From positions 744,001-808,000 of the forward strand of contig AP018269.1 in assembly GCA_003994795.1 (NCBI GenBank): a stretch of DNA of 64,000 nt, given 5' to 3'. Every line of letters starts with the position of its first letter. The first letter of the stretch is position 1. This document shows, in pieces, positions 13,749 through 54,179 of this stretch. Origin of the DNA: Cylindrospermum sp. NIES-4074. Lineage in GTDB: Bacteria > Cyanobacteriota > Cyanobacteriia > Cyanobacteriales > Nostocaceae. The position numbers were made by a program, and so were the translations under genes. A model generated the notes under the pieces. That model was not told the DNA's origin, made no database searches, and saw only the letters and a list, made by a program, of their open reading frames with translations.

Positions 13749-13927
13749 GTAAGCATTCAGCCGTCAGCTATCAGCTATCAGCTATCTTCAGGGATTTATG
13801 AGCATTCTGACAGATGGATTACTAATCGCTTTTAGTGTAAGTCTCCTCTCTCCAACTCAAAACCCTTAAACTTCAGTCTAAAAAACGGTTTTAGCTGACT
13901 GCTGACCGCTGATAGCTGAATGCTTAC
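13749..13927. mobile_element. Miniature IS66-like element (MITE), copy A, 179 bp
   Basis: It begins GTAAGCATTCAGC and ends GCTGAATGCTTAC. It is flanked by a perfect 8-bp duplication AACACAAT (13741-13748 and 13928-13935). The terminal repeats contain heptamer runs (CAGCTAT/CAGCCGT). No coding capacity. GTAA ends and 8-bp target duplications are IS66-family traits. It ends 58 bp before the clpP start codon. Confidence 0.9.
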
Positions 13928-13985
13928 AACACAATTCCCCGTTGTCGTCTATAGAATAGATGTAAAATAGCTACAAGCACGCTCC

Positions 13986-14591
13986 ATGATTCCCATCGTT
14001 ATTGAACAATCCGGTCGCGGCGAACGCGCCTTTGACATCTACTCACGGCTGTTGCGTGAGCGCATCGTCTTTTTGGGACAACAGGTTGATAACAGCATTG
14101 CTAACCTGATTGTTGCCCAGCTGCTGTTTTTAGATGCTGAAGACTCGGAGAAAGACATTTATTTATATATCAATTCTCCCGGTGGTTCAGTGACAGCAGG
14201 GATGGGCATCTTTGACACTATGAAGCACATTCGTCCCGATGTCTGTACTATTTGTACCGGTTTGGCGGCGAGTATGGGCGCTTTTCTTCTGAGCGCTGGT
14301 GCTAAGGGTAAGCGGATGAGTCTACCCCATTCGCGGATTATGATCCATCAACCTCTAGGTGGCGCTCAGGGACAAGCGACTGATATTGAAATTCAGGCGC
14401 GAGAAATTATCTACCACAAGCGCCGGCTCAACGACTATTTAGCCGAACACACTGGCCAGCCAATTGAGCGCATTGCGGAAGATACTGAACGTGACTTCTT
14501 CATGTCGCCAGAGGAAGCCAGGGAATATGGCTTGATTGACCAAGTGATTGACCGTCACGCCGCAGGTAGTCGTCCGCTAGCGGTTGTGTAG
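13986..14591 (+). CDS. clpP: ATP-dependent Clp protease proteolytic subunit
   Basis: This serine protease subunit forms the tetradecameric barrel that degrades proteins fed by ClpC or ClpX. The 201-residue sequence has the full triad: Ser96 in [11 protein letters not shown], His121 in [13 protein letters not shown], and Asp170 in [11 protein letters not shown]. The YINSPGGSV oxyanion-side motif is present. It is one of several ClpP paralogues expected in a cyanobacterium; since all catalytic residues are kept, it is not the inactive ClpR. A miniature element occupies the upstream promoter region and may affect expression. Confidence 0.96.
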
Positions 14592-14777
14592 TCATTGGTC
14601 ATTGGTCATTAGTCATTGGTCATTGGTTATAAAAGCTTTAACAACTGACTACTGACAGCAGAGGAGGCATTGTTGCAGGCTAGCAAGAGGCAATAGTATT
14701 TATCTCCTGCCTCATGCCACCTGCCCCCTGCCACCTGCCCCCTGCCTCCTGTGCCTCCTGCCCCCTGCCCCCTGCCT
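14592..14777. repeat. Heptanucleotide tandem repeats
   Basis: Five TCATTGG-type heptamers (14592-14626) and a run of CTGCCCC/CTGCCTC-type heptamers (about 14706-14777) fill the spacer between clpP and the convergent gene. Such short tandem repeats are typical of filamentous cyanobacteria. Confidence 0.85.
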
Positions 14778-14780
14778 AAT

Positions 14781-15644
14781 TTAAAATCCGGCGATGGGGT
14801 CTGGCTGAGATTCCAGGTATCTCAGGAAGTCTAGTAATTCTTCTTCACTGAGTAAAGAGCGTCCTAACTTACCGTAGGTTTTTTTTAGATGTTCCTTTCC
14901 CTGCTCTTTTGTCCAGCCTAAGCGCTCGATTTGGACATCGGTTTTGGCAATGACATCAGACAAATTCACAGGTTCACTTTTCTTTTTTCGCTTTCCTATC
15001 CCTGACTGAGCGCCCATTTCCTCTTGAGCAGCATAACTGCGCGGCGTAAATGGTGTAACATTACTGGCAGCTATTCCTGGTAAAGGTTGACTGTCAGGCT
15101 CGTTACTAGAAAAAGTTCCCACGTTTTCGACTGGGGTATCAAACTGGTTTTCCCAGCTGCTTGTTGACGGAAAGCGTTGATCTAAGTCTTGGTTGTAGGT
15201 ATCAATTTTGCTTTGGTTGGGTGTGTCATTTAAGACTAAATTTGGTTTAATATCCCGTCCACTAGAAAAGGGTGGAGATGTTTCTTTGCCACTAACCACA
15301 GACAACGGACTACTGAGAAAATCTCCATCTTTTGTGGAACTATAAGCGGATTCATGCAATCCACTTGGAGTATTCAAGGGGGGGGTTAGCTGCACTTGGG
15401 TAATGGGTTTTGGGGAAGATGCTACCGCTCCTGCTGGTGCATTTGTGATTCCCAACACTGTCAGCGCCCTATTTCTGGCTTGGTCTTCGGCTGCTTCTAC
15501 TGTTTCTGCTGCTGCCATACCAGTAGCACGGGTGACGCCTTCAATTTGCACACTGGCCCGGACAATATATTTGCCTTGAAAAATTTGCACTAATTCTGAT
15601 GTGAGACTGCCGTTGGGATACAAGCTCTGGAATTGAGCCAACAT
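14781..15644 (-). CDS. Conserved cyanobacterial protein, possibly Rad52-like
   Basis: The 287-residue protein has two conserved ends and a long low-complexity Ser/Pro/Thr middle (about 75-225). The N-terminal part, SLYPNGSLTSELVQIFQGKY then VRASVQIEGVTRATGMA and EDQARNRALTVLGI, resembles the strand-strand-helix of Rad52-type annealing proteins. The C-terminal part reads GWTKEQGKEHLKKTYGKLGR and then SLLSEEELLDFLRYLES. I recall that motif from the tail of phage and cyanobacterial single-strand annealing proteins. The Rad52 link is a motif-level inference. A hairpin lies upstream at 15678-15719. Confidence 0.6.
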   Translation of the reverse strand: MLAQFQSLYPNGSLTSELVQIFQGKYIVRASVQIEGVTRATGMAAAETVEAAEDQARNRALTVLGITNAPAGAVASSPKPITQVQLTPPLNTPSGLHESAYSSTKDGDFLSSPLSVVSGKETSPPFSSGRDIKPNLVLNDTPNQSKIDTYNQDLDQRFPSTSSWENQFDTPVENVGTFSSNEPDSQPLPGIAASNVTPFTPRSYAAQEEMGAQSGIGKRKKKSEPVNLSDVIAKTDVQIERLGWTKEQGKEHLKKTYGKLGRSLLSEEELLDFLRYLESQPDPIAGF

Positions 15645-16320
15645 AATACTGCCACCAATCTAAGTCTGTTTAATTACGGGGTTGATGCTACCTGTTTGCT
15701 CAAGCTACGTAGCATCCCCTTGTGATATCCTCTCCAACTTAAGTTGCAAATGCAGCTGTGCTGGATTTCAAACTATGACAGGAGATGATTAACCTTGCCC
15801 AGAGTGGATATCTAGAGGTATTTTAATTTTACGTCCACCTGTGGGACTTCAAGGTGCTATTCGCGTCTTGAGGAATGTGTCCCGACTGTAGCAGCAGCTG
15901 TTTCCAACAAATTTTTGGCTACTGCTGTCCTACTCTGAGTGGTCTTCTCTTCAATGCTATACTAAATACCCAATTCGTTATTCAGAACTATTTTCTGGAA
16001 GTGTAGTCTAAATCTACAATAATGAAGATAAGGTTCGCCCTCACTGTTTGTTATGCTGCTTACCTAATTGTTACCGATTCTACATATGGGAAAATTGGGT
16101 TTACCAGCAGTTTCTCCTAGTCAAAAATCAGAGTTTCATGGCGTAAAATTACCTTCAATCTAGACAATCAAACACCTGTGGTTTACCCTGCATAGCGCTT
16201 TTGGGCAGCGTGGGGAGTTCTCCAAACCAAGCCTCTTAAAAACCCGTTGTGTAATTACTTAGTGGGGCAAAATCGAGTATCAGGAGTGCTTTGTCAGATT
16301 GGTTAGGTGAAGGAAGTTGA
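15645..16320. other. Spacer between divergent genes, with one hairpin
   Basis: No gene is seen in this part of the 911-bp divergent spacer. A hairpin GATGCTAC...GTAGCATC with flanking GGG/CCC (15678-15719) lies about 35 bp upstream of the minus-strand start and could be an operator or leader structure. The promoter of the downstream RNB gene probably lies near 16200-16300. Confidence 0.5.
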
Positions 16321-16323
16321 ACG

Positions 16324-16516
16324 CTCTCGAACTCTGAGAGAGTCGTGCAGTGAGAAGTTTGAGCAGAGGCTAACTCTCTTGCGGAACTTCGGCAGCCTTG
16401 CCTCCGGGCAATTTGTTTGCACCAAGTGTGTGTGTAAGCCGTGAGGGTACACAGGGAAGAACCAGATTAAACCGGACACTTGCGTGCGTGGGTTTTACCC
16501 CGTTGAGCTAAGTGTC
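16324..16516 (+). ncRNA. Structured leader or small RNA upstream of the RNB gene
   Basis: Several hairpins follow each other: CTCTC/GAGAG (16324-16340); GAAGTT/AACTTC (16354-16390) with an inner AGAG/CTCT; TTGCC-TCCG-GGCAA (16398-16411); and GACACTT/AAGTGTC (16475-16516) enclosing GGG/CCC. The last ends 39 bp before the start codon. I do not recognise a known RNA family. It may be a regulatory 5' leader, or a separate RNA. Confidence 0.45.
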
Positions 16517-16555
16517 TTCAAAAAATGATGTTTTGACCAAAGGTCGGTTCACTGC

Positions 16556-18910
16556 ATGGAATTTTCAATCGCTACACTCCTTGCCAATTTCACCGATGAT
16601 AAATTGGTAGCCCGTAAAGTTCTGGAAAAGAAACTTGGTTGCGAAGATGAACAGAGTTTACAAAAACTTCACATTGCCCTGGAGGTTTTGGAAAAAACCG
16701 GGATTTTGGTGAAAGAACGGGGTAAGTATCGCCGTGTGTCAGAAGAGGGATTGATTGAAGCAAAACTCCGTTGTTCTAGTAAGGGCTTTTGCTTTGCTAT
16801 TCAAGATGTCGAGGGGGCTGAGGATATTTATATCCGTGAAAGCCACCTGAGTAATGCTTGGAATGGCGATCGCGTTTTGGTGAGGGTTCTCAAAGAAGGT
16901 AGTCGTCGTCGCTCTCCCGAAGGGGAGGTGAAGCTGATTCTGGAACGCTCTAATCACACTTTGCTGGCACGGATTAAACAGGTAGAAGGCGGTTTCCGTG
17001 CTGTCCCCCTAGACGATCGCTTGCTGTTTGAACTCAAGCTGCAAACAAACGGCATGAAATTGGAAGAAGCGATCGATCACCTGGCCCATGTAGAAGTCTT
17101 GCGTTACCCCTTAGCCCAATATCCCCCACTGGGTCGGGTGGTGCAAATTTTGGGTAGCGATGCCGAAGCTGCTGCTGATATAGACTTGGTAACTTGTAAG
17201 CATGATTTAGCGCGTACATTCTCGGATAACGTCCTCGATGCAGCCTCAAAGTTACCCAAAAGGCTGTTGAAAGCAGACCTGAAAAATCGGCTGGATTTAC
17301 GTAATTTGTTTACCCTGACCATTGAAGGTGTCAATGGTGACTCCACTGTGGTAGAAAATGCTTTTAGCTGGGAAAAAACCTCAGATGGAGATTGGCGTTT
17401 GGGTGTTCACATTACTGATATTTCCCATTACATTCTACCTGATGAACCCTTAGATAGAGAAGCAATCAAGCGGGGTAAATCTGTGTATTTGGGAGAGTTA
17501 GTGTTGCCGATGTTGCCTGAAGCCGTAGCAGAACGCTGTTCTTTGGTTACCGGAAGCGATCGCCTAGCTCTTTCTTTTTTGATTACCATCGAACCGCAAT
17601 CAGGTGAAGTGCTAGATTGGGAAATTCAACCCAGTGTGATTAATGTAGACACTGCTGTCAGCAAACAACAAGCCCAAGCTATTCTCAACGCTAAACCAAC
17701 GAATGAATCTCCCCAGGTCATTAAAATCATCCAAGACCTGGAAAACTTAAGAAAAGCAGTCAAACAAGCCCGATTAGCTCGTGGTAGCTTGCAGTTGAAT
17801 CTGCCACCCAGCCAAAACCCCTACTATGATGAGGGGATTCTAGGGGCTGTGGTCGTGAATGATTTACCTGTGCGATCGCTTTTAACAGAGTTAGTGCTGC
17901 TAGTAAATCAATTGATAGCTAATCACTTGAGCGCCTTGGGAGTTCCCGCCATTTGGCGAGTTCAAGGCACACCCGATCCCGAAGATGTCCAAGAAATGCT
18001 GAAATTGGCGATTAATTTAGGTGTGGAACTGTCACTAGACCCAGAACTAGATATCCAACCCCTAGATTATCAACACTTAACCAGGGCTTTTGGCGAATCG
18101 GTATCTGAGCAAGTCCTCACCTACTTATTGCAAGATACCCTCAAGCCATCTGTCTACAGCACCACCAAAGGACAGCACTTCGGACTGGCTCTGCCACAAT
18201 ATATCCACTTTACTGCTCCTTTGCGGCGCTACCCAGATTTGCTCATGCAAAGGGTGTACCATACACTACTGGAACACGGGCGCGATCGCCGCAATACTCG
18301 TGTGAGAGACCGTGTTAACCTGCGCCATTCCTCTTGTCATGAGGAAATTAACTGGAATGTTCTCCCTCCCGAATTGCAACAAGAACTCCAAAGCGATTTA
18401 ACTAGGGTAATTATCCAGATTAACGACAGGGAGAAAGAAGTCCAAGAAGCCGAAGCCGATTTAGCTGGACTGCAAAAAGCCCAACTGATGAAACAGCGTA
18501 TTGGCCAAGTGTTTCATGGCGTCATCACTGGTGTTCAATCCTACGGTTTCTTTGTCGAAATTGAAGTCCCAGCCCCAGAAGTTGAAGCTGGTGCTAACCC
18601 TGGTGTACCCCTAAGAGTAGAAGGACTGGTACACGTCAGTTCCCTCAAAGACGATTGGTATGAATATCGCGCTAGACAACAAGCGTTATTTGGGCGGAAA
18701 AATCGCGCTTCCTATAGATTAGGCGATCGCGTAGCCGTGCAAGTTAAGAGTGTCGATTACTATCGTCAGCAAATTGATTTGGTCACCGTCGGCAGTGATG
18801 GCGTACCCAAAGGCTTGGGGATCAATGCTCATAATGAAGATATATCAGACATTTATTTAGCAAATGACATTGAGCCAGGTGACTTAGATCCTTATGGTGA
18901 TGATGAGTAA
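16556..18910 (+). CDS. RNB-domain protein of the ribonuclease II/R family (Zam-like)
   Basis: The 784-residue protein has an N-terminal winged-helix/cold-shock region, a central RNB domain (GVHITDISHYI, RGKSVYLGELVLPMLPE, and HFTAPLRRYPDLLMQR) and a C-terminal S1 domain from about residue 655. RNase II/R enzymes degrade RNA from the 3' end. Here the usual catalytic motif D-x5-D-x-D-D reads IEGVNGDSTVVENAF (256-270), so the metal-binding Asp residues are replaced (E257, E267, N268). That suggests weak or no nuclease activity. The length fits the Synechocystis Zam protein (acetazolamide resistance), which I recall as RNB-like. ubiX follows after 17 bp. Confidence 0.85.
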   Translation: MEFSIATLLANFTDDKLVARKVLEKKLGCEDEQSLQKLHIALEVLEKTGILVKERGKYRRVSEEGLIEAKLRCSSKGFCFAIQDVEGAEDIYIRESHLSNAWNGDRVLVRVLKEGSRRRSPEGEVKLILERSNHTLLARIKQVEGGFRAVPLDDRLLFELKLQTNGMKLEEAIDHLAHVEVLRYPLAQYPPLGRVVQILGSDAEAAADIDLVTCKHDLARTFSDNVLDAASKLPKRLLKADLKNRLDLRNLFTLTIEGVNGDSTVVENAFSWEKTSDGDWRLGVHITDISHYILPDEPLDREAIKRGKSVYLGELVLPMLPEAVAERCSLVTGSDRLALSFLITIEPQSGEVLDWEIQPSVINVDTAVSKQQAQAILNAKPTNESPQVIKIIQDLENLRKAVKQARLARGSLQLNLPPSQNPYYDEGILGAVVVNDLPVRSLLTELVLLVNQLIANHLSALGVPAIWRVQGTPDPEDVQEMLKLAINLGVELSLDPELDIQPLDYQHLTRAFGESVSEQVLTYLLQDTLKPSVYSTTKGQHFGLALPQYIHFTAPLRRYPDLLMQRVYHTLLEHGRDRRNTRVRDRVNLRHSSCHEEINWNVLPPELQQELQSDLTRVIIQINDREKEVQEAEADLAGLQKAQLMKQRIGQVFHGVITGVQSYGFFVEIEVPAPEVEAGANPGVPLRVEGLVHVSSLKDDWYEYRARQQALFGRKNRASYRLGDRVAVQVKSVDYYRQQIDLVTVGSDGVPKGLGINAHNEDISDIYLANDIEPGDLDPYGDDE

Positions 18911-18927
18911 ATACCCTGTATACCCGT

Positions 18928-19548
18928 GTGTCCAATAACATCAAACCCTTAATTTTAGGCGTATCAGGCGCATCGGGCCTGATTTACGCCGTTCGCGCTC
19001 TCAAATTTCTGCTAGAAGCAGAGTATGGGATTGAACTGGTTGCTTCCAAATCAAGCTATATGGTTTGGCAAGCAGAGCAGGATCTCCGGATGCCCCCAGA
19101 ACCAACTCAACAAGAGCAATTCTGGCGGGAGCAAGCCGGAGTTCCGCTATTGGGTAAACTACAATGCCATCCTTGGAGTGATGTTGGCGCCAATATCGCT
19201 AGTGGTTCCTTTCGGACTCTGGGGATGGTGATTATGCCCTGTAGTATGAGTACGGTAGCCAAGCTAGCAGGGGGCTTAAGTTCCGACTTACTAGAACGGG
19301 CAGCAGATGTTCAAATTAAAGAAGGTCGCAAGCTAGTCTTAGTCCCTCGTGAAACTCCTTTTAGCCTGATTCACCTGCGTAACTTAACAACCTTAGCCGA
19401 AGCTGGCGTGAGAGTTGTTCCCGCCATTCCTGCCTGGTATCACAACCCCCAAACCATTGAGGATTTAGTTGACTTTGTGGTTGCCCGTGCTTTAGATCAA
19501 CTAGATATTGACTGCATCCCTATTCAGCGCTGGCAAGGAAGAAAGTAA
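18928..19548 (+). CDS. ubiX: Flavin prenyltransferase UbiX
   Basis: UbiX attaches a dimethylallyl group to FMN, making the prenylated flavin cofactor used by UbiD-type decarboxylases. The 206-residue protein starts at GTG with LILGVSGASGLIYAVRAL, the FMN-binding glycine loop. It also has GSFRTLGMVIMPCSMSTVA and LVPRETPFSLIHLRN, the family's phosphate- and prenyl-binding blocks, and PAIPAWYHNPQTI near the end. It lies 17 bp after the RNB gene and is probably co-transcribed with it. Confidence 0.95.
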   Translation: MSNNIKPLILGVSGASGLIYAVRALKFLLEAEYGIELVASKSSYMVWQAEQDLRMPPEPTQQEQFWREQAGVPLLGKLQCHPWSDVGANIASGSFRTLGMVIMPCSMSTVAKLAGGLSSDLLERAADVQIKEGRKLVLVPRETPFSLIHLRNLTTLAEAGVRVVPAIPAWYHNPQTIEDLVDFVVARALDQLDIDCIPIQRWQGRK

Positions 19549-19660
19549 AAAGGTAAAAGTAAAAAGGTAAAACAAAGATAGAGTAACTTTTTACTTTTGC
19601 CCTTTACCTTTAACCTTTTACTTTCAAGAAATGACTTTTTACTTTTGCCTTTAACCTTTT
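19545..19660. repeat. AAAAGGTAAAAGT-type direct and inverted repeats
   Basis: Short AAAAGGTAAAAGT units are followed by their complement (ACTTTTGCCTTTAACCTTTT units). A long A/T stem between ubiX and the next gene can form. The last unit ends just before the next ATG. Confidence 0.75.
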
Positions 19661-19662
19661 CT

Positions 19663-20337
19663 ATGGCTGTAATTCGCTTAATTTTGTTAGTAGCGGTACT
19701 GGGAGGACTAACGCTGTTGTTAGCTCAAAATTGGTCGCCTCCCCTCTCCCTGGTATTTTTGGGTATGCGGACTCAAGCATTACCCCTTTCACTATGGATT
19801 TTGTTCAGTGCTACCGCTGGGGGTTTCACTTCCATATTGATTACCACTTTGTTTAAATTGTCCAACTTATTTCCAGGACAACAGCAAAAAATTTCATCCC
19901 CATCCCCATCAGCAGCAACTTCACGACCTGGGAAGGCAAATAGAAGAGAAGAACCTACACCCCCCCCTAAGAGTCCACCACCACCCGCTAGTAAAACTAA
20001 TTACACTACCAGTCAGGAATTTGATGATTGGGATACAAGTCGAAATCAAAATGACGATTGGGACTTTGAGGAAGAATCAGAGGAACAACCTACTCCCAAA
20101 ACGTCAGAACGAGGAAAAGCACCTGAAAGTGGCTCTCGATCCGGTTCAGTTTACTCCTACAGCTCCCAGGAACCAAAAAATACGGCTGTGGGCAAAACCG
20201 AATCTGTTTATGATGCTGATTATCGGGTAATCATCCCTCCTTATAAACCACCAACTACCAATCAGACAGATGAAGATGATTGGGATTTCTTTGATGACAA
20301 CGATTCTGAGGATGAAGATGAACGTCCCCGTCGGTGA
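19663..20337 (+). CDS. LapA-like membrane protein with acidic tail
   Basis: Reading from the ATG at 19663 gives 224 residues. Two transmembrane helices (LILLVAVLGGLTLLLAQN and LSLWILFSATAGGFTSILI) resemble the LapA/DUF1049 two-helix domain. The remaining two thirds are a disordered, Pro/Ser-rich, strongly acidic cytoplasmic or lumenal tail with repeated DDWD motifs. An upstream TTG is in frame but would place repeat DNA in the coding region. The function is unknown. Confidence 0.7.
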   Translation: MAVIRLILLVAVLGGLTLLLAQNWSPPLSLVFLGMRTQALPLSLWILFSATAGGFTSILITTLFKLSNLFPGQQQKISSPSPSAATSRPGKANRREEPTPPPKSPPPPASKTNYTTSQEFDDWDTSRNQNDDWDFEEESEEQPTPKTSERGKAPESGSRSGSVYSYSSQEPKNTAVGKTESVYDADYRVIIPPYKPPTTNQTDEDDWDFFDDNDSEDEDERPRR

Positions 20338-20424
20338 GCCTAGTGCAGTATAGCGAAAATTACTAACTACTGATATTCAACTCAAAAGCTTCATATCTAA
20401 AGATTTCTTTTTTTTGCCCCTTGC

Positions 20425-20652
20425 CTATTTGATGCCACACTGCTCTCGTGACTCTTGCTTGACTTTACCTGTCATAGCAGCTTCCTGCAAAGTCATAAAA
20501 GCATTAAAATCTTCCAAGTCATACTGGGTAGTTAAAAGTTGTCGTAGTTTATTTTCTGCTTCCACAGTCAAATAGCCAGTTACTAAAGCTTTTTGCACAA
20601 CATCCCGAATTCGAGTCATGGCTGAGACCTCATTCATACCACATTGATTCAT
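20425..20652 (-). CDS. Small conserved cyanobacterial protein
   Basis: The 75-residue soluble protein has a helix-rich core, TRIRDVVQKALVTGYLTVEA then LRQLLTTQYDLEDFNAFMTL, that I recall from many cyanobacterial genomes without a known function. AAGG precedes the first ATG; inner Met codons at residues 6 and 12 are possible starts. It is monocistronic, and the upstream spacer carries its promoter. Confidence 0.7.
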   Translation of the reverse strand: MNQCGMNEVSAMTRIRDVVQKALVTGYLTVEAENKLRQLLTTQYDLEDFNAFMTLQEAAMTGKVKQESREQCGIK

Positions 20653-22628: not shown

Positions 22629-22634
22629 ATTATA

Positions 22635-25837: not shown

Positions 25838-25844
25838 ACCTGAT

Positions 25845-28247: not shown

Positions 28248-28728
28248 TTGCTTCCTGGTCATTAGATCAGCCTAGACTCTATCCGAAAACCAAAAGTTAT
28301 ACATAAGAGTAACCGACAACAATATTGTGACATTTAGATTTCTGTTGGCAAAAGTTCCTAAAAATAAGATTCCTAGATTATTCTCTGGTGAGAGAAATAA
28401 AAGAGGTATTATTGTCAACGTTAAAATTACTATAAATAAGCTTGTATTATAGATATGTATAATCTACAATAATCACTGAGACTTTGAACCGTTTGGGAAC
28501 ACGTCCGACGTGAAATAAGTTAAACACACTACTATTTTATTGATAGCAGTGTAAATTTGCCATAGTCAAGATATACAGCACTTTGCGCGACTAACTGGGA
28601 TAGGTTTTATCTTATTTTCCAGTTGATGTCCTCAACACTTGTACTTAAACCTTGTGGAAGTTGCTATATAAATAACTGTTTTTTTGCACCAGCTATAGAA
28701 TTCAAGTCAGCCAATTTTCCGTTTTATG
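28248..28728. other. Spacer without a gene
   Basis: The AT-rich divergent spacer upstream of pdxH runs up to the miniature element copy B. No gene or RNA is seen. Confidence 0.5.
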
Positions 28729-28874
28729 GTAAGCATTCAGCCGTCAGCAATCAGCAATCAGCTATTAACTTTTGTCATTATCTACTGTGTAACTTTTTCC
28801 CACTCAACACGCCCGAAATGGGGTGGTGATTGGGTTAAGGCTCAAAGCTGACCGCTGAAATGCTGAGTGCTTAC
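28729..28874. mobile_element. Miniature IS66-like element, copy B, 146 bp
   Basis: It starts GTAAGCATTCAGC and ends GAGTGCTTAC. A perfect 8-bp duplication GTTTTATG flanks it (28721-28728 and 28875-28882). The middle differs from copies A, C and D while the ends are shared, so only the termini define the family. It ends 54 bp before the PhyH gene. Confidence 0.9.
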
Positions 28875-28928
28875 GTTTTATGCCTTTCTAATTCCTCAAT
28901 CTTATTCCGGAATTTTTCCAGTAAAATT

Positions 28929-39284: not shown

Positions 39285-39355
39285 TGTAGAGTGCGTCAGA
39301 CTCAATCAATAATTTGGCAATCATGAACAGATTTTTCCATCTGACGCACCCTACA
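39285..39355. repeat. Inverted repeat of 16 bp with one mismatch
   Basis: TGTAGAGTGCGTCAGA (39285-39300) and TCTGACGCACCCTACA (39340-39355) enclose 39 bp. It lies just left of miniature element C and could be the relic of another small element or a long hairpin. Confidence 0.7.
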
Positions 39356-39361
39356 AGAAAT

Positions 39362-39583
39362 GTAAGCATTCAGCTATCAGCGGTCAGCAGTCAGCGTTCG
39401 ACTGAGCTCACGCCGTTCGCGTAGCGTTCCGCAGGAAAGTCTAAAACCAGTTTTTAGGCTGAGTTTAAGGATTTTGAGTTGGGGAAACTGACACCAAAAG
39501 CAATTATTAGCAGTCCCTCTGCCAAAATGCTCATAAATTCTTTAATATTGCTGATAGCTGATAGCTGACTGCTGAGTGCTTAC
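39362..39583. mobile_element. Miniature IS66-like element, copy C, 222 bp
   Basis: Ends are GTAAGCATTCAGC and GAGTGCTTAC, with a perfect 8-bp duplication CAAGAAAT at both sides (39354-39361 and 39584-39591). The inside is the reverse complement of copies A and D. A nested, GC-rich palindromic insert (about 39398-39445, GCCGTTCGCGTAGCG...) is missing in copy A. Confidence 0.9.
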
Positions 39584-39653
39584 CAAGAAATTTGACCAAT
39601 ACTACATATTTGGTGTTTACTGTCAATGCGTAAGTCATAAACAATTAAACTTG

Positions 39654-43189: not shown

Positions 43190-43203
43190 TTTAGGTTAGT
43201 TTC

Positions 43204-44550: not shown

Positions 44551-44552
44551 GT

Positions 44553-45029: not shown

Positions 45030-45075
45030 GTATAATACAGGGTATTTAGGTTGCAACCTTTGAGGTATAAATATC

Positions 45076-45657: not shown

Positions 45658-45690
45658 AAACACAATTAAAGTGTAATTACTATTTTGCTT

Positions 45691-46449: not shown

Positions 46450-46473
46450 ATTAATTACCCAAATTTAATAAAA

Positions 46474-47271: not shown

Positions 47272-47330
47272 AGTTTATCAGCACTGAGATTCTAGTTTAT
47301 ATCAAGATATGTTCAAGCATCAGAGCTAAC

Positions 47331-47675
47331 TTATATATCTGATATTTTTGTGGCGAATTGTACACCAAAACCATCGGGATCTACAATGATAAAATCTCTT
47401 AAGCCGTAGTCGCGATCGCTAATCGGATTAATGACACTAGCGCCTAATTCTTGTACTAAATGCCAATAATCATCGACATTGGGAACCATTACCCGGATAT
47501 TTGGTGGCGGAAAAACAGATGTTTGGGGTAAGTTTCGTTGTTCAGCTAAAAAAAGCAGATGACTGTCCCATTTGAATTCAGCAAAGGTGCTGTTTTCTCG
47601 AATTAACTCAAATCCTAATCGACGGTAAAACTCAGTTGAGCGTTTGATGTTGTGTACAGGGATTTCGACTACCAT
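47331..47675 (-). CDS. VOC family (glyoxalase-like) protein
   Basis: The 114-residue single-domain protein has the vicinal-oxygen-chelate pattern: VVEIPVHNIKRSTEFYRRLG opening helix-strand, FAEFKWDSHLLFLAE, and VDPDGFGVQFATKI, the typical D-P-D-G-xxx-x-F closing strand with the metal Glu position here as Gln. Members range from glyoxalases to fosfomycin or bleomycin resistance proteins; the substrate is not known. It is convergent with the DUF4336 gene. Confidence 0.85.
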   Translation of the reverse strand: MVVEIPVHNIKRSTEFYRRLGFELIRENSTFAEFKWDSHLLFLAEQRNLPQTSVFPPPNIRVMVPNVDDYWHLVQELGASVINPISDRDYGLRDFIIVDPDGFGVQFATKISDI

Positions 47676-47777
47676 TTTCTTACCTCTTTCTATGTAAAGT
47701 AATTAGTTGCTCTGGATGATGACAAACCAACATTTTGAGAACACAGACTATATATATCTGTATCTATTTGTCCTTAC

Positions 47778-49061
47778 TTATCCAACAGGTGTTTCACTCT
47801 TTAATATGCCCTTTTGCTCATAAATTGGGCGGATAATATGCCTCAAAGTAGGCAATTGTCTGTAGAAAATAATCGAACCTAGAATACAAGCTATCCCTGC
47901 AATAATTAATGTATTAGGAGTGCCGATATAATTTGCTAAAACACCTCCCCATAAATTACCTAAAGGTATCATCCCCAAAAATGACATTCCATATAAGCTC
48001 ATCACTCGTCCGCGTTTATCATCTTCAACAATTGTTTGTAAAATTGTGTTAGCAGAGGCAATTTGCAGGATTGTGCCTAAGCCAACAAACAACATTGTGA
48101 ATAAAGAAAGTGGTAAGGAGCGAGATAAAGAAAAACCAATCAACCCGATTCCTAAAGTTGCTGGAGCAAAAGCTAACAATTTTCCTAACCCCACTACTGT
48201 GCGTCGCGTAGTTAAATAAATTCCTCCACTTAAAGCTCCGACTCCTGATGCTGCCATCAAATAACCTTGGGCTTCTGGCCCGCCGTTAAGAATTTTGACT
48301 GTAAATATGGGGATAAAAATCATGTATTGCATTCCCATAAAACTCACTAAAGCCGATAGCAATAAGATGGCGCGGATGGGTGGAGAACTAAAGGAATAAA
48401 CCAATCCCTCTTTGACTTTTTGCCAGAGATTACCGTTACTTACTGGAATTTGCTTTTGCTGAACTTTCATGGCTAATAAAGCAGCTATGACAGCGATGTA
48501 ACTGAGTCCATCAAGTAAAAAACAGTAAGCTACACCGATACCGGCTATCAATAAACCCCCAATCGCTGGGCCAATTAACCGCGCACCGTTTACCATTGTG
48601 GAATTAATGGCGATCGCATTTGCTAAGTCGTCTCGATGCTCAACTAGTTCTGGCACAAGGGCTTGACGCGCTGGCATATCTACAGCATTAATAAACCCTT
48701 GAAACAAGCTTAAGGCGATAATATGCCAAATCTCAATCACCCCAGTCAGCGCCAGCACAGCCAGCACTAAGGACTGAATCATCGCTAATATCTGCGTACC
48801 AATTAAGGTACGATAGGTAGAAAATCTATCCACAAACACACCACCAAAGGGAGCGAGAAAAAAGCTAGGAATTTGACTGGTAAATCCCACAATTCCTAGC
48901 ATCAATGGTGAGTTTGTTAAGTGATAAACTAGCCAAACTGTCGCTAGTTGTGTCATCCATGTCCCAATTAGAGATATACCTTGTCCGGCAAAAAACAATT
49001 GGTAGTTTCTTGACCTGAATGCAGGTAGAATTGGCTGTTTTGGAGGTGGTTTCGTAAGCAT
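47778..49061 (-). CDS. MFS transporter of the EntS/PF05977 group
   Basis: The 427-residue protein has 12 predicted helices. NYQLFFAGQGISLIGTWMTQ, LVYHLTNSPLMLGIVGF, and FGGVFVDRFSTYRTLIGTQ are the opening blocks of the drug/siderophore exporter group. RQALVPELV and LFVGLGTILQIASANTILQ follow. Its product is likely a drug or siderophore exporter. A MarR-family gene lies upstream on the same strand, and both genes share the sequence motif described at 49198 and 49751, suggesting MarR control. Confidence 0.9.
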   Translation of the reverse strand: MLTKPPPKQPILPAFRSRNYQLFFAGQGISLIGTWMTQLATVWLVYHLTNSPLMLGIVGFTSQIPSFFLAPFGGVFVDRFSTYRTLIGTQILAMIQSLVLAVLALTGVIEIWHIIALSLFQGFINAVDMPARQALVPELVEHRDDLANAIAINSTMVNGARLIGPAIGGLLIAGIGVAYCFLLDGLSYIAVIAALLAMKVQQKQIPVSNGNLWQKVKEGLVYSFSSPPIRAILLLSALVSFMGMQYMIFIPIFTVKILNGGPEAQGYLMAASGVGALSGGIYLTTRRTVVGLGKLLAFAPATLGIGLIGFSLSRSLPLSLFTMLFVGLGTILQIASANTILQTIVEDDKRGRVMSLYGMSFLGMIPLGNLWGGVLANYIGTPNTLIIAGIACILGSIIFYRQLPTLRHIIRPIYEQKGILKSETPVG

Positions 49062-49197
49062 AAATAATGAGCAGCAACTGTTTTGATATCTTATTAAGTA
49101 TCAGCGCTTATAAAGTATTAATTAACATTTTCCTGAAAATTTGTGCTACTTATTAAGGCAGATTTATGCAGGTATGTCAAAACTTGATCGGGTTTAG

Positions 49198-49216
49198 TTA
49201 GTATGCGTACTATTGT
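49198..49216. promoter_or_regulatory. Candidate MarR operator upstream of the MFS gene
   Basis: TTAGTATGCGTACTATTGT holds the inverted arms TAGTA/TACTA. The same 19-bp pattern with five changes stands in front of the marR-type gene (49751-49769). The site is 137 bp upstream of the exporter start. Confidence 0.4.
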
Positions 49217-49240
49217 GCCAAAATTATCTATAATCAAGCT

Positions 49241-49256
49241 TCACCCAGTTGGGTGA
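49241..49256. repeat. Short palindrome after the MarR gene
   Basis: TCACCCA and TGGGTGA face each other across 2 bp, 14 bp past the MarR stop codon. It could be a weak terminator or an extra operator half. The following T content on the minus strand is poor. Confidence 0.4.
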
Positions 49257-49269
49257 TTATAGAATCATC

Positions 49270-49737
49270 TTAAGAAAGGTTGGCGATCGCGCGATTTAAA
49301 ATTTGAGAAAATATTTCCCTGTCAGTAGCAGAAATACCTTGCATGGCTTCGTCTCGCATTTCTGCGGCAATTGGGGGCAATACCCGTTCGAGCTCCTTAC
49401 CGGCATTAGTCAGCCAAATCCGCCAAATGCGGCGATCGTGAGCGTCCCTTTCTCGACGCACTAAACCGCGCTCTTCCATTCGGTCTAAGACCCCTGTTAA
49501 AGTGCCTCCCACCTGTTTAAGTTGATCGCCGATGCTAGAAGTCGGTAAACCATCTTCTCGCCATAAACAACATAAAACTAACCAGTGAAATGATGTTAGT
49601 CCAAACGGTTCTAGCTTTTCATTAAACTTGCGACTGAGCAGTTGTGATAGCAATTTAATTCTGTAACCCATACCGTGTGGTGCGAGAACTTGCTGCCATG
49701 TCTCCAATGCTGGGGAATAATCGGATTGAGCAACCAT
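49270..49737 (-). CDS. MarR family transcriptional regulator
   Basis: The 155-residue protein has the winged-helix layout: FHWLVLCCLWREDGLPTSSI as helices 2-3, LKQVGGTLTGVLDRMEERGL as the recognition helix, and VRRERDAHDRRIWRIWLTN as the wing with the conserved D-x-R. Long helices at both ends form the dimer. MarR proteins repress efflux genes until a ligand binds; the exporter gene downstream is the likely target, and the shared motif supports autoregulation. Confidence 0.92.
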   Translation of the reverse strand: MVAQSDYSPALETWQQVLAPHGMGYRIKLLSQLLSRKFNEKLEPFGLTSFHWLVLCCLWREDGLPTSSIGDQLKQVGGTLTGVLDRMEERGLVRRERDAHDRRIWRIWLTNAGKELERVLPPIAAEMRDEAMQGISATDREIFSQILNRAIANLS

Positions 49738-49750
49738 TTACCAAAATTAC

Positions 49751-49769
49751 TTAGTGTACGTAATATTAT
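49751..49769. promoter_or_regulatory. Candidate MarR operator upstream of the MarR gene
   Basis: TTAGTGTACGTAATATTAT stands 13 bp before the start codon. ATTAC and GTAAT arms surround it. It matches the motif before the exporter gene at 14 of 19 bases. Confidence 0.4.
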
Positions 49770-49815
49770 CATAGCTAGATAAATCTGTCTTGACAACTAA
49801 CGCTTTCCATCTACC

Positions 49816-51435
49816 CTACGGCAGGACTTGAATCAACTGGGACTTTTGCACAGTACCCAGAACATGGTGAGGTGTGGATAATTCAGCAGACCGTTGAGTA
49901 GAGATCCAAGCATAGCTAAAAGCTGGTAATTCGGAAATTGAGTTTACCTTCTTACCATGAATCGGAGTGTAGAAATTGAGCAGCACAGCAGTTTTTCCTT
50001 CCACTTCCACAAAGTAGATCGGATGATTTTGGAGAATTTTAGCGATCGCCGGTTGTTGGAGAAAAGTTCTAAAAACCGGATTATAATCCCCCAAGAAACC
50101 AAAGCTACCAGCCACAGCTAACGCCAGCCAACAGGGAATTAACCAACCCGCCACCCAGTAATCAGATGTCAGCCACTTATTACCAAAGTGATAACGACTA
50201 ATCCACACCACAGGTAAAATTAACCAACCTAACCCCATAGTTAAGCCAAAAATTGCATACTTGCGAAACTCAGCATTACCTCCAGCCAAAGCCACTACAC
50301 CCCCTAGCAAAAGTAAAACACCTAACACACCACAGGCATAACTGAGGTTACGGAGAATCATCCAAATATAGTGATGGGGTGGTTTTTTCCTGTCTTCATA
50401 AACTTGTCCCAGCCAATTTAAACCCACAGCCGCCAGCATGGCAATAAAGGGATAAAGAGTTAAACTATAGTGAGACAAACGAGTGGAGAAAATACTTATT
50501 TCTAAAAATAAGGTCAGGGGAAACCCAACTAATATCAATTGATGGCGAGGGATAGGACGACGGATTGTTACAAATAAGCCAAAAAGACTAAAAAAGAACC
50601 AAGGAAACGATTTTAAAGGGACATTCCAAAAATAGAATATAATCCCATTATGATTACGTTCTTTGGAACCTAATTCAACAACAAAATTGAATAAATGCTG
50701 AAAGCTTTGATTGCCGTAACGCAGCCAATCAAACCACAGCCAAACAAAAGCAGGAATTAAACCTACTACAAAACCTAAATACAAAATTGGGTTGAGCAGA
50801 TGGCGATGGCGGCGATGCTCCCAAATTAAATAAGGTAATAATGCTATGATGGGCAAGAAAATCATAAAGCTTCTGAGTAAGAAGCCTAAGCCAAAACTTA
50901 AGCCGGCAATAAAACTCCAAATATAAGCATATTTAGGATGTAATTCGGCTTTTAGCAAAGACCAAATCGCTAAAAGCACCAATAAAATCATTGGGACATC
51001 TGGCGTACCTAAGCGACAGTATTGTAGCCAGAGAAATTCTACACTCAAAATTGCCCCAGCTAGCCATGCTACCTTTTTTCCTAATAGTATTTTACCGATT
51101 TCATATACTAGTAATAATGCTAAAATACCAGCAATCATCACAGGTAGTCGCGTACTAAATTCACTGATGCCAAAAAGCTGGTAAAAACTGGCAATTAGCC
51201 AATAGAATCCAGGTGTCTTGTGATGGGCATTGTCCCAAGGGGCTACCCAATCACCCGAATCAAACATCTGGCGCGATCGCCAAGCATAAAGCCCCTCATC
51301 ATGTGCCATTAGGCTATTCTCCCCAGAACTGAAGAGTAATAAGGGGAGTATCCAAACCAACAAACTGATATACGGTAATGGCATCACTAGGCGCATTTGT
51401 GACCAAATCGGCTGTAAAAATTGTAGTTTAAACAA
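49816..51435 (-). CDS. Glycosyltransferase family 39 (ArnT-like) membrane protein
   Basis: The 539-residue protein has about 12 hydrophobic helices, with the family's first loop acidic motif (HDEGLYAWRSRQMFDSGDWV) and NAHHKTPGFYWLIASFYQLF right after it. GT39/ArnT/PMT-type enzymes move a sugar from a polyprenyl phosphate carrier to lipid or protein on the outer face of the membrane. The acceptor is not known. TTG 51435 is the longest start; ATG at 51396 (MRLVMPLPYIS) is an alternative. Neither has a good ribosome site. Confidence 0.88.
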   Translation of the reverse strand: MFKLQFLQPIWSQMRLVMPLPYISLLVWILPLLLFSSGENSLMAHDEGLYAWRSRQMFDSGDWVAPWDNAHHKTPGFYWLIASFYQLFGISEFSTRLPVMIAGILALLLVYEIGKILLGKKVAWLAGAILSVEFLWLQYCRLGTPDVPMILLVLLAIWSLLKAELHPKYAYIWSFIAGLSFGLGFLLRSFMIFLPIIALLPYLIWEHRRHRHLLNPILYLGFVVGLIPAFVWLWFDWLRYGNQSFQHLFNFVVELGSKERNHNGIIFYFWNVPLKSFPWFFFSLFGLFVTIRRPIPRHQLILVGFPLTLFLEISIFSTRLSHYSLTLYPFIAMLAAVGLNWLGQVYEDRKKPPHHYIWMILRNLSYACGVLGVLLLLGGVVALAGGNAEFRKYAIFGLTMGLGWLILPVVWISRYHFGNKWLTSDYWVAGWLIPCWLALAVAGSFGFLGDYNPVFRTFLQQPAIAKILQNHPIYFVEVEGKTAVLLNFYTPIHGKKVNSISELPAFSYAWISTQRSAELSTPHHVLGTVQKSQLIQVLP

Positions 51436-51578
51436 AATTTAATTGCTGAACATCGAATTTTGCTGTCTAGAATCATTTAGACGCCTTATGCTTATTAAAA
51501 TATGTTACATATTCCTAATTCTCAAAAATACCTGATATTGAAGCAATTTTGCTCAAAATCTTTCCAGAATAGACTTTT

Positions 51579-52232
51579 ATGCCACTTAGACCAAATCAAC
51601 GCCTGAAGCTAGATGATACAGACGACAAGCTGTTTTACGCTTACCCGCGCTTTGTCACTCATGTCGATGACGGCTTTATTCAACAGCTAACGGATTTATA
51701 TCGTCAGCGACTAAAACCTAACACGCGCATCTTTGATATGATGAGCAGCTGGGTGTCTCATCTACCAGATGATATGGAGTTTGACCATGTTGAGGGTCAT
51801 GGACTCAATGCTGAGGAACTATCACGTAATCCTCGGCTAAATCATTATATTGTGCAAAATCTCAACGAAAATCCCCAACTAACTTTACCAGATCAAAGTT
51901 TTGATGCCGTTCTTAACTGCGTTTCTGTGCAGTATGTGCAATATCCAGAGGCAGTATTTTCGGAAATTTACCGCATCCTCAAACCTGGTGGCATCGCCAT
52001 TATCAGCTTTTCTAACCGGATGTTTTTTCAAAAGGCGATTCAAGCTTGGCGGGATGCAACAGAATCTACTAGAGTCGAATTAGTCAAACGCTACTTTGCC
52101 TCAGTACCGGGATTTACTACTCCAGAAGTTATTGCCCATAAGTCAACAGTACCGAATTTCTTGCAGTGGGTGGGCATACCTGGAGGAGATCCGTTTTATG
52201 CTGTCATAGCTTATCGGCGTGAAGCACAATAG
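51579..52232 (+). CDS. SAM-dependent methyltransferase-like protein, degenerate motif I
   Basis: The 217-residue protein shows class I methyltransferase motifs in the second half: DQSFDAVLNCVSVQYVQYPE, EIYRILKPGGIAIISFSNRM. The SAM-binding glycine loop, usually DxGxGxG, reads RIFDMMSSWVSHLP, so its glycines are lost. FDHVEGHGLNAEEL follows as motif II. This variant may bind SAM differently or have lost activity. The substrate is unknown. It is divergent from the glycosyltransferase gene. Confidence 0.8.
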   Translation: MPLRPNQRLKLDDTDDKLFYAYPRFVTHVDDGFIQQLTDLYRQRLKPNTRIFDMMSSWVSHLPDDMEFDHVEGHGLNAEELSRNPRLNHYIVQNLNENPQLTLPDQSFDAVLNCVSVQYVQYPEAVFSEIYRILKPGGIAIISFSNRMFFQKAIQAWRDATESTRVELVKRYFASVPGFTTPEVIAHKSTVPNFLQWVGIPGGDPFYAVIAYRREAQ

Positions 52233-52403
52233 TTAGTTATTTAGTTGTTTAAGGCGATTAATTGCTGATTAATCCAGCAAAAAACCAGAAATTCAGGAAT
52301 TCTAGACACCCAGCGATAATTATCGAAAAGTAAATTTTCTGGGTTAAACACCACACAAACACTGATAATTGCCTCAAAGCTCAAGCATCAAGGAGACCAT
52401 TCC

Positions 52404-52919
52404 GTGACTTTACTCGGTGGACGCAGAATTTTAGCCGCTTTATTACTGTCAGTTCTACTACTGACCACAACTACAGCCTGTTCGACAAAAGCTCCTAGTC
52501 GTTTTGACCAGGTACAACAGGAAAGCACCAAGAAGAAAAGCGGGCAAGCAGTTGACAAAAATGCAACTCAGGGAAGCAAGTTAAATAAATTCTTCCCTGC
52601 TGGAGGAGATGGCTACCAGCGTGTCTATACTCAAGAGAAAAAAGGCTTTTCTGAAGCGAACTTGAAAAAAGGTGGCAAAACTGTAGCTCAACTTGCTATT
52701 TCTGACACCAGCAGCACACCAACCACAGCGTCAAAATTCGCTAATAGCACCAAAAAGATTGGTGGTTATCCAGCAGTGGAGCAAGGTAAAACTCAAACTT
52801 CGGTTTTGGTGGGTAAGTACCAAGTGAAAGTGATTTCTAAAGATCCCACATTTACAGCAAGCGATCGCGCAGATTGGATCGAGAAATTTAATCTTGCTGG
52901 TCTAGCTAAATTGAAATAA
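52404..52919 (+). CDS. Hypothetical lipoprotein
   Basis: A GTG start opens 171 residues with a lipoprotein signal peptide ending in TTTTACS (lipobox Cys about residue 26). The mature part is Lys/Ser/Thr/Gln-rich with SGQAVDKNATQGSKLNKFFP and a beta-rich tail (SVLVGKYQVKVISKDPTF). No known domain. It is followed after 49 bp by another gene of unknown function on the same strand, probably co-expressed. Confidence 0.75.
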   Translation: MTLLGGRRILAALLLSVLLLTTTTACSTKAPSRFDQVQQESTKKKSGQAVDKNATQGSKLNKFFPAGGDGYQRVYTQEKKGFSEANLKKGGKTVAQLAISDTSSTPTTASKFANSTKKIGGYPAVEQGKTQTSVLVGKYQVKVISKDPTFTASDRADWIEKFNLAGLAKLK

Positions 52920-52968
52920 GCTACACTACACGGATTTCAGATAACAAACCTTAAATAAGGAGATTGCT

Positions 52969-53856
52969 GTGAGTAAATCGATTTTTGAGTTAGTTGATGA
53001 ATTGCCAACCAGTAACTTGACTGTTTCTGTGTTGAAGTCTCTTGATTTTGTGGCTCCTGGTGAGTGGCAAAATACCGTCGGTTTTGTGAATACTATTAAA
53101 ACAGTTACTGGCGAAACTGACGAAGACTTAATTCAACAAATTGGCGAACGAGCGATTTATCTTTTCAACGACAAATCCCAAGGATACCAAAGGGCATTAT
53201 GGCTCTATCAAACTGTTGATGGTACAGATAAAGCCCTTGGTGCAGCAGCTTTGGCTAATAAAGTTGGTGAGAACGTTGCTTTTTTGGGTTTTTTAAACAG
53301 TCTTACTCCCAAACCAGACAAAGCCCAAACCATAGACCTAACATTGAAGGTAGTGGTTGAATTGGTAGCTTTCTGCCAAATTAATGGCATTCCCGGAGAC
53401 AGCATTGGAGATTTTGTCGCCTCTTTAGGTGAGTATAGTGGTGAGTCTCTAATTCGGATGGTGGCGTTAATTTGCCTTGATGGTTTGATACCTCTAGGCC
53501 CAGATTTTATCACCAAGGCTTTATCTGGAATTAGTCAGACCAACCCCCAAGAGTTAGCACAAAACTCGACTTTCCAAAACATCAAGGACACAATTCCTGG
53601 TGGCAATGACGCTGGCAAACTCAACTTTATTGGCGAAAGTTTTGACTCAGTTAAAGGTTGGATGAGTGGAATTGTCACCGCCAATAATTTAACGCCACAA
53701 AAAGTTGTCAGTAATGTGCAAAGTTTTGTCCAACTTGCTGATGATAAGTTAGACTACCTGGCAGCGTTTCTGGATGTAGCTACAAATTACTATGAGCATA
53801 CAGGTACGCAAACTTTAGCTCGGCGCTTGATTGAACGAGCAGTAGCTGAAATTTAG
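52969..53856 (+). CDS. Conserved cyanobacterial protein of unknown function
   Basis: The 295-residue protein starts at GTG with an AAGGAG site 7 bp upstream. It is mostly helical with FVNTIKTVTGETDEDLIQQI, ANKVGENVAFLGFLNSLTP, GEYSGESLIRMVALICLDGL and a helical C-terminus (LDYLAAFLDVATNYYEH). There is no signal peptide or transmembrane helix. I do not recognise a family name. The preceding lipoprotein may be its partner. Confidence 0.7.
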   Translation: MSKSIFELVDELPTSNLTVSVLKSLDFVAPGEWQNTVGFVNTIKTVTGETDEDLIQQIGERAIYLFNDKSQGYQRALWLYQTVDGTDKALGAAALANKVGENVAFLGFLNSLTPKPDKAQTIDLTLKVVVELVAFCQINGIPGDSIGDFVASLGEYSGESLIRMVALICLDGLIPLGPDFITKALSGISQTNPQELAQNSTFQNIKDTIPGGNDAGKLNFIGESFDSVKGWMSGIVTANNLTPQKVVSNVQSFVQLADDKLDYLAAFLDVATNYYEHTGTQTLARRLIERAVAEI

Positions 53857-53912
53857 TTTGATTTAGTAATGGGTAATGCTGGTAATTACCCATTACCAAG
53901 CATTGATTTAAT

Positions 53913-54179
53913 GTAAGCATTCAGCCGTCAGCCGTCAGCTATCAGCAATCTTCAAGAATTTATGAGCATTATGACAGAGAGATTACTAATTGTTTTTAGT
54001 GTAATTATCCCTTGAGAAAAACCCTTAAACTCAGTCTAAAACTCTGTTTTAGACTTTCCTGCGGAACGCTACGCGTTGGCGGTTCGCGGAGCGTGTCGCA
54101 GACAAGCCTGCGCTTTGCGCTTACGGCGTGAGCGAGCGTCGAACGCTGACTGCTGACCGCTGAAGTGCTGAATGCTTAC
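53913..54179. mobile_element. Miniature IS66-like element, copy D, 267 bp
   Basis: It runs from GTAAGCATTCAGC to GAATGCTTAC and is flanked by a perfect 8-bp duplication GATTTAAT (53905-53912 and 54180-54187). The inside matches copy A up to about 54050. A GC-rich nested palindromic insert of about 90 bp (GCGGAACGCTACGCG...GGCGTGAGCGAGCG) then follows, longer than the one in copy C. Confidence 0.9.

What the first reader, a model, noticed from the sequence alone, without database searches (positions are those of the whole stretch)
13749..54179. Four-copy miniature element family with IS66-type ends and perfect 8-bp target duplications
Copies at 13749-13927, 28729-28874, 39362-39583 and 53913-54179 each start GTAAGCATTCAGC and end with GCTTAC after a GCTGA heptamer-type run. 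Each is flanked by a different perfect 8-bp direct repeat: AACACAAT, GTTTTATG, CAAGAAAT and GATTTAAT. That is direct evidence of transposition, not just repeats. They encode nothing, so they depend on a transposase elsewhere. IS66 elements start GTAA and make 8-bp duplications, so an IS66 relative is the likely mover. Copy B shares only the ends, meaning the family is defined by its termini. The ends contain heptamers (CAGCTAT type), linking the short tandem repeats of such genomes to transposable elements.
Basis: partly seen in the sequence, partly recalled or inferred. Interest (0 to 1): 0.78.

Follow-up and report, generated by a model that had tools for sequence, protein, structure and literature searches.

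The report
IS66-ended miniature elements with shuffled arms
These are four copies of a larger family of short, gene-less jumping DNA pieces in a cyanobacterium, very probably moved by the enzyme of IS66-type insertion sequences, and the copies look as if they were built from interchangeable parts.

Summary
All four copies sit at the stated coordinates, begin GTAAGCATTCAGC and have perfect, mutually different 8-bp target duplications. They belong to a genome-wide family: 144 exact tips in the 7.70-Mb genome, 0 for the reversed control. At 71 places two tips face each other; 61 have duplications of at least 7/8. One of 12 sites tested has a clean empty site in a relative. The IS66 assignment is well supported. 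The genome carries seven near-identical IS66 copies with GTAAGGATTCAGGT ends, five of them with perfect 8-bp duplications. IS66 copies or remnants elsewhere carry GTAAGCATTCAGG, identical to the MITE tip over 12 bp, and one plasmid-sized-contig copy of the MITE itself begins GTAAGCATTCAGGT. No intact IS66 with the exact CAGC tip at both ends was found. This is a MITE family, a new member of a known kind; the mobilising transposase is inferred, not shown.

The parts
13749..13927 (.). Copy A, 179 bp, no insert; 58 bp lie between it and the start of a clpP-type ORF (13986-14591 +)
13741..13748 (+). Left target duplication of A, AACACAAT (right copy 13928-13935)
28729..28874 (.). Copy B, 146 bp, second core type (one other member among 76 copies, C1:6378304); 54 bp before the likely start (28929, my choice of start codon) of a PhyH-domain ORF
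28721..28728 (+). Left target duplication of B, GTTTTATG (right copy 28875-28882)
39362..39583 (.). Copy C, 222 bp, main core type in reverse orientation, with a short form of the palindromic insert
39354..39361 (+). Left target duplication of C, CAAGAAAT (right copy 39584-39591)
53913..54179 (.). Copy D, 267 bp, main core type with the full palindromic insert; 56 bp after ORF 52969-53856
53905..53912 (+). Left target duplication of D, GATTTAAT (right copy 54180-54187)
13755..13782 (+). Left heptamer arm of A (NNTCAGC x4); right arm 13894-13921 on - strand
28735..28762 (+). Left heptamer arm of B; shorter right arm 28847-28860 on - strand
39368..39395 (+). Left heptamer arm of C; right arm 39550-39577 on - strand
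53919..53946 (+). Left heptamer arm of D; right arm 54145-54165 on - strand

Best explanation
[quoted passage not shown] Shown: conserved 12-13 bp inverted tips (GTAAGCATTCAG-C), 8-bp target duplications, recent movement, an empty site, strong avoidance of coding sequence, heptamer arms that pair across the element, and modular reassortment of arms and insert. Inferred: an IS66-family DDE transposase (single-ORF type, about 490 aa) binds the tips in trans, cuts the element out or copies it, and joins it to AT-rich intergenic target DNA with an 8-base stagger. The source is either the resident seven-copy IS66 or a relative, not found here, whose tips read GTAAGCATTCAGG. Also inferred: copies exchange arms and insert by recombination or gene conversion within the family, and the heptamer number changes by slippage, while only the outermost 12-13 bp are held constant by transposase recognition.
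For: Copies and duplications. Control tip counts. Recent activity: four identical 176-bp copies (C1:282261, 1419751, 3545650, 4881867) and two identical 266-bp copies (C1:468880, 3587735) at different sites. Empty site: G002 runs 398 bp across the joined flanks of the C1:4881867 copy without the element; no tip is present at the G001/G002 places of copies A and D. Resident IS66: 7 PF03050 genes, 1547 bp, ends GTAAGGATTCAGGTC, perfect 8-bp duplications in 5 of 7. IS66 ends elsewhere. IS66 sequence with the GTAAGCATTCAGG tip: L182 right end, L302/L349, L299, L322, L351/L358, L356. A MITE copy in this genome with a GTAAGCATTCAGGT tip and perfect duplication TTAAATTT, C4:168743, 286 bp. Sites: 4 of 61 copies lie inside an ORF of 100 aa or more, against 716 of 1220 random positions in the same flanks. 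Folding: z -5.5 to -7.2 against dinucleotide shuffles. All eight left arm x right arm x insert combinations present.
Against: The resident IS66 tip differs from the usual MITE tip at positions 6 and 13. None of the 44 IS66 elements reads GTAAGNATTCAGC. Two of the seven resident IS66 copies have no matching duplication. Blast found no internal homology between MITE copies and resident IS66 beyond one 20-bp match in a single copy (E 5e-5) and three of 11-12 bp. Genomes G032, G222, G098, G198 and G199 have 9 to 50 tips but no PF03050 match. Tip-rich genomes carry IS66 more often than others, 13 of 18 against 108 of 199, but not significantly (Fisher p 0.21). No tip pair with matching duplications in this genome is long enough to hold a transposase gene.
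Confidence: 0.86

Rival explanations
1. A MITE family moved by a transposase of another family (or by an undescribed one) that happens to make 8-bp duplications and to recognise tips resembling those of IS66.
For: No autonomous element with the exact tip was found; 5 of 18 tip-rich genomes lack PF03050; the resident IS66 tip is 11/13, not 13/13.
Against: Given GTAA, at most one mismatch over the next 8 bases has a chance of about 4e-4 (my arithmetic), and IS66 elements or remnants with the identical 12-mer exist in several genomes, three of them rich in the MITE tip (G210, G238, G016). The duplication length also matches. I searched for no other transposase family, so this rival is not excluded by a direct test.
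Confidence: 0.09
2. REP/REPIN-like or other palindromic repeats spread without a classical cut-and-insert transposase.
For: Strong hairpin folding, intergenic location.
Against: 8-bp target duplications of at least 7/8 at 61 of 71 tip pairs, sharp boundaries at GTAA/TTAC, and one clean empty site.
Confidence: 0.02
3. Copies dispersed by recombination or segmental duplication, not transposition.
For: Modular shuffling shows that recombination probably acts on the family; one pair on contigs C3 and C4 shares its flanks; 10 of 71 tip pairs lack a duplication.
Against: Identical copies have different flanks and different duplications.
Confidence: 0.02

Closest known systems
Single-ORF IS66-family elements of Nostocaceae and relatives (PF03050 with a DUF6444 N-terminal region), e.g. 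the seven resident copies
   Same: GTAA...TTAC ends, GTAAGNATTCAG core, 8-bp target duplications
   Different: They carry a transposase of about 490 aa, have CAGGT instead of CAGC after the core, and show no heptamer arms
MITEs of Anabaena sp. 90 (PMC3542288, passages seen)
   Same: 77-541 bp, 147 complete or partial copies, 132 of them intergenic, folded structure predicted; no similarity to the inverted repeats of the genome's ISs, hence called type II by the authors
   Different: Sequences and duplications were not in the passages I saw, so identity could not be tested
Nezha MITE of cyanobacteria (Zhou et al. 2008; seen only as a citation)
   Same: Active MITE in cyanobacteria, by its title
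   Different: Paper not seen; its ends could not be compared
Short tandemly repeated repetitive (STRR) heptamers of heterocystous cyanobacteria (recalled)
   Same: 7-bp tandem units in intergenic DNA
   Different: Here the units are arms of a mobile element, in inverted orientation at its two ends

Membership tests
MITE | Short (<about 500 bp), multicopy | tested here: met
   130-437 bp, 76 copies scored
MITE | Terminal inverted repeats | tested here: met
   106 of 122 ends of 61 pairs read GTAAGCATTCAGC exactly
MITE | Target-site duplications of constant length | tested here: met
   8 bp; 61 of 71 tip pairs match at >=7/8, the other 10 at most 5/8
MITE | No transposase gene | tested here: met
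   No listed ORF >=100 aa lies within the four window copies (one ORF frame starts 15 bp inside copy B); the longest of 76 copies is 437 bp
IS66-mobilised (type I) MITE | Ends begin GTAA (IS66 hallmark, recalled) | tested here: met
   the genome-wide scripts required GTAA
IS66-mobilised (type I) MITE | 8-bp duplication as in IS66 | tested here: met
   5 of 7 resident IS66 copies and other IS66 elements also show 8 bp
IS66-mobilised (type I) MITE | Tip shared with an IS66 in the same genome | tested here: inconclusive
   11 of 13 bases for the usual tip; 13 of 14 for the copy at C4:168743
IS66-mobilised (type I) MITE | Tip shared with IS66 in relatives | tested here: met
   12 of 12 bases of GTAAGCATTCAG at one end of L182, L299, L302, L322, L351/L358, L356; base 13 is G there, C in most MITE copies; only L182 is a complete element, and its other end is GTAAGGATTCAGGT
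IS66-mobilised (type I) MITE | Movement depends on IS66 transposase | not testable with these tools
   needs an assay
Nezha MITE | Same inverted ends and duplication | not tested
   paper not seen
MITEs of Anabaena sp. 90 | Same inverted ends | not tested

The most novel reading that the evidence does not exclude
The heptamer repeats scattered through heterocystous cyanobacterial genomes are, at least for the NNTCAGC type, the expandable arms of IS66-mobilised MITEs, and the MITE is a combinatorial platform: only the outer 12-13 bp are fixed by the transposase, while arms, core and a palindromic insert are exchanged between copies by recombination, so that one transposase drives an open-ended set of hairpin cassettes into promoters and 3' ends.
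Probability: 0.3. Interest if true: 0.6.

Novelty: new member of a known kind. Interest (0 to 1): 0.42.

Why it matters
MITEs of a cyanobacterium were reported without a matching insertion sequence (Anabaena sp. 90, PMC3542288, called type II there; passages). Here a parent family is proposed from tip sequence, duplication length and natural tip variants, which makes a trans-mobilisation test possible. The modular copies give a natural data set on how short mobile repeats recombine. Two window copies lie within 60 bp upstream of likely start codons (a clpP-type gene and a PhyH-domain gene), where they could alter expression; that is inference.

Tried and rejected
Autonomous element with exact tips in this genome: all 144 exact tips lie in the fetched stretches. 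Tip pairs with matching duplications were sought up to 6 kb apart within those stretches, which reach about 1-3 kb beyond the tips; the longest found is 437 bp. A looser search from 38 lone tips over up to 2.9 kb gave only MITE-sized partners, apart from one weak 1109-bp pairing at C4:14382 with 7 tip mismatches that I took as chance. Both searches required matching duplications, so an autonomous element without them would be missed. The first 60 bases inside the lone tips look like MITE in nearly all cases; for two that do not (C1:5329876, C1:1014751) I listed the ORFs inside and saw no transposase by eye, without a family search. The one-mismatch tips were not listed one by one beyond those that turned up as partners.

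Long tip spacings in relative G032 (957 and 3028 bp) were unrelated tips without matching duplications; between the 3-kb pair lie two ORFs of 412 and 363 aa that I did not identify.

Plasmid collection: no match to copy D. Rfam at gathering threshold: no family at the MITEs. Text searches: the 13-mer tip is in no held paper, and in the listings and passages I saw no IS66-linked MITE with heptamer arms. Of the 10 papers holding both 'IS66' and 'MITE' I looked at passages of two. Wolk et al. 2010 (PMC2950511), which I wanted, is not held. Of all papers used I saw search listings or passages only.

Association of tip-rich genomes with IS66: tested, not significant (with counts taken). No search was made for other transposase families as movers.

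Of 12 joined-flank queries, one gave a clean contiguous empty site (G002, C1:4881867). For three more (copies A and D, and C1:1731448) a relative has the place without a MITE tip but with divergence or gaps; for copy A in G001 the two flank matches lie about 0.8 kb apart, so that place differs in other ways too. For the other eight I did not establish an orthologous empty site; several of these flanks hit dispersed repeats.

Full report
OBSERVATION. The four copies were read directly. Each begins GTAAGCATTCAGC; A and D end in its exact inverse, B and C with one mismatch (GTAAGCACTCAGC). Each is bounded by a different perfect 8-bp direct repeat. In the whole genome (7,704,857 bases, 5 contigs) the tip occurs 76 times forward and 68 times reverse, 0 for the control pattern (the tip read backwards), and 215 times with up to one mismatch, 2 for the control. 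I fetched the surroundings of the tips; all 144 exact tips are in the fetched stretches. At 71 places a left and a right tip with at most 2 mismatches face each other within 500 bp: 61 have target duplications of at least 7 of 8, and 10 have at most 5 of 8. Nine further copies with one damaged tip were recognised by their duplication, so they are a selected set. Of 76 copies scored (61, those nine, and 6 of the 10), 55 match 8/8, 15 match 7/8 and 6 match 4/8 or less; sliding the right flank by 8 bp gives at most 5/8. Expected 8/8 by chance is 1.9e-5 per site.

IT MOVES. Four copies of the 176-bp form are identical yet lie at four sites with four different duplications, and two 266-bp copies are identical. 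Joined flanks of 12 copies were searched in the other two genomes of the genus that are held. In G002 the flanks of the C1:4881867 copy align over 398 bp across the junction (78% identity, small gaps), with no element and one, diverged, target region. For copy D, G001 keeps the left flank to within a few bases of the target and has no tip in 3.2 kb. For copy A, the clpP side is conserved in G001 and G002 with no tip nearby; in G001 the other flank lies about 0.8 kb further off. C1:1731448 is present in G001 without the element but with gaps. For the remaining eight of 12 I did not establish an empty site. Insertions avoid genes: 4 of 61 lie inside an ORF of at least 100 aa, against 716 of 1220 random positions in the same flanks.

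ANATOMY. Behind the tip, which itself fits the pattern, run heptamers NNTCAGC, mirrored as GCTGANN at the other end, so the constant TCAGC pairs with GCTGA while the two variable bases need not pair. All four copies fold into one long hairpin, z -7.2, -5.5, -7.2 and -6.7 against 100 dinucleotide shuffles each. Sizes cluster near 165-179 and 264-274 bp. The difference is a palindromic insert of about 92 bp (GACTTTCCTGCGG...GTCGAACG) at one fixed spot; shorter forms exist, as in copy C. Copies are mosaic. The left arm is of NNTCAGC type or of TTGTAGCTTCAAGC type, the right arm ends AAGT or ATA before the tip, and the insert is present or absent. All eight combinations occur (10, 10, 16, 12, 9, 4, 1 and 6 copies; 68 of 76, the other 8 carry other variants), and copies with an identical core differ in arms or insert. 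The insert label in that script catches only two insert forms, so the 'none' class holds some copies with unusual inserts (for example C1:3707762), and one combination rests on a single copy. The simplest reading is recombination or gene conversion between copies; this is inferred. Copy B and one other of the 76 copies (C1:6378304, 91% identical) have a different core behind the same ends.

THE LIKELY MOVER. The genome carries seven near-identical IS66 copies (PF03050 and DUF6444 regions in a 490-aa protein). Each is 1547 bp, begins GTAAGGATTCAGGTC and ends in the inverse; five have a perfect 8-bp duplication, two (L034, L037) match at only 3 and 2 of 8. From 80 loci in named genomes, 28 gave element-like ends with duplications, 27 of them plausible IS66 ends and one (L230) a spurious pair. 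Pooling the 172 IS66 loci non-redundant elements with duplications of at least 7/8 have 88 ends. Of these 64 read GTAAGGATTCAGG; the rest are variants such as GTAAGCGTTCAGG, GTAACCGTTCAGG and one GTAAGCATTCAGG; 82 of 88 match the MITE tip at 10 or more of its first 12 bases (GTAA was required by that script). The MITE tip thus differs from the resident IS66 at base 6 and base 13. Both differences occur as natural variants. IS66 copies or remnants with GTAAGCATTCAGG at one end beside transposase sequence: cyanobacterium SU3 (L182, right end), G210 (L302/L349), G238 (L299 and L356), G016 (L351/L358), G060 (L322). G183 (L343) has the tip with the typical IS66 leader but no tblastn match. These are 7 of the places found; most of the 37 listed places of GTAAGCATTCAGGK in the family show no transposase match and many may be chance. 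G210, G238 and G016 are themselves rich in MITE tips (39, 44 and 47). Conversely, a MITE copy in this genome (C4:168743, 286 bp, perfect duplication TTAAATTT) begins GTAAGCATTCAGGT, 14 of 14 bases as in several of those IS66 remnants and 13 of 14 as in the resident IS66. Two more such copies, at C3:253935 and C4:157033, share their flanks with each other, so one is a segmental duplicate.

WHAT SPEAKS AGAINST. No intact IS66 with the CAGC tip at both ends was found. In the family (217 genomes held), 18 genomes have at least 8 exact tips; 13 of these have an IS66 match against 108 of 199 others, p 0.21. Five tip-rich genomes (G032, G222, G098, G198, G199) have none. Single tips in many other genomes are near chance (a 13-mer is expected about 0.2 times in a 7.5-Mb genome, my arithmetic). 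No other transposase family was searched for as mover, and the searches for an autonomous element here required matching duplications. The IS66 link is therefore strong on ends and duplication length, but not proven functionally, and the resident copy need not be the one that moved the MITEs.

HEPTAMERS. In the window 8 of 9 arrays of at least two NNTCAGC units are MITE arms; the ninth, 59423-59450, has no tip and may be a remnant. MITEs seen in G016 and G238 (140 bp, perfect duplications) have no such heptamers behind the GTAAGCATTCAG tip, and their other end reads GTAAGAATTCAGGAGTCAGG, so these arms are not universal.

VERDICT. An ordinary kind of element, a MITE family, here with clear evidence for IS66-type ends and a modular, shuffled build. 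The literature passages I saw report cyanobacterial MITEs without a known parent (Anabaena sp. 90, PMC3542288) or only mention Nezha; I could not compare sequences with either.

Noticed in passing
window 59423-59450 (-): Array of four NNTCAGC heptamers without MITE tips; possible remnant of a MITE arm.
   Followed up: partly
G000:C1:4651392-4651828 (L077): A 437-bp MITE copy contains a nested insert with inverted ends (GGGAACTCCAAC...GTTGGAACTCCC) flanked by TAA on both sides: apparently another small element inside the MITE (read by eye).
   Followed up: no
G000:C1:5211256-5211514 (L086): A MITE copy holds a nested palindrome of roughly 100 bp (GGGACTTACGCA...GCGTAAGTCC), read by eye.
   Followed up: no
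L112, L127 and other PF03050 matches in open frames of about 900-940 aa: IS66 transposase domain at the C-terminal side of a much longer protein whose N-terminal part looks nuclease-like (my recall, no family search); possibly a composite enzyme.
   Followed up: no
genome G016: 33 scored PF03050 matches, many of them partial with stops inside, plus 47 MITE tips in a 5.5-Mb genome: looks like a burst and decay of IS66.
   Followed up: partly
L034 and L037 (G000:C1:2475050, C2:313628): Two of the seven resident IS66 copies lack matching duplications; recombination between copies is one possible cause.
   Followed up: no
window 5497-5562 (+) and 61355-61415 (+): Rfam matches: NsiR4 nitrogen-stress sRNA, and Plastid-psbN 5'UTR.
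   Followed up: no
L322 (G060): An internally deleted IS66: 5' leader joined to the C-terminal 50 codons, an IS66-derived miniature element of another make, with the GTAAGCATTCAGGT tip.
   Followed up: partly
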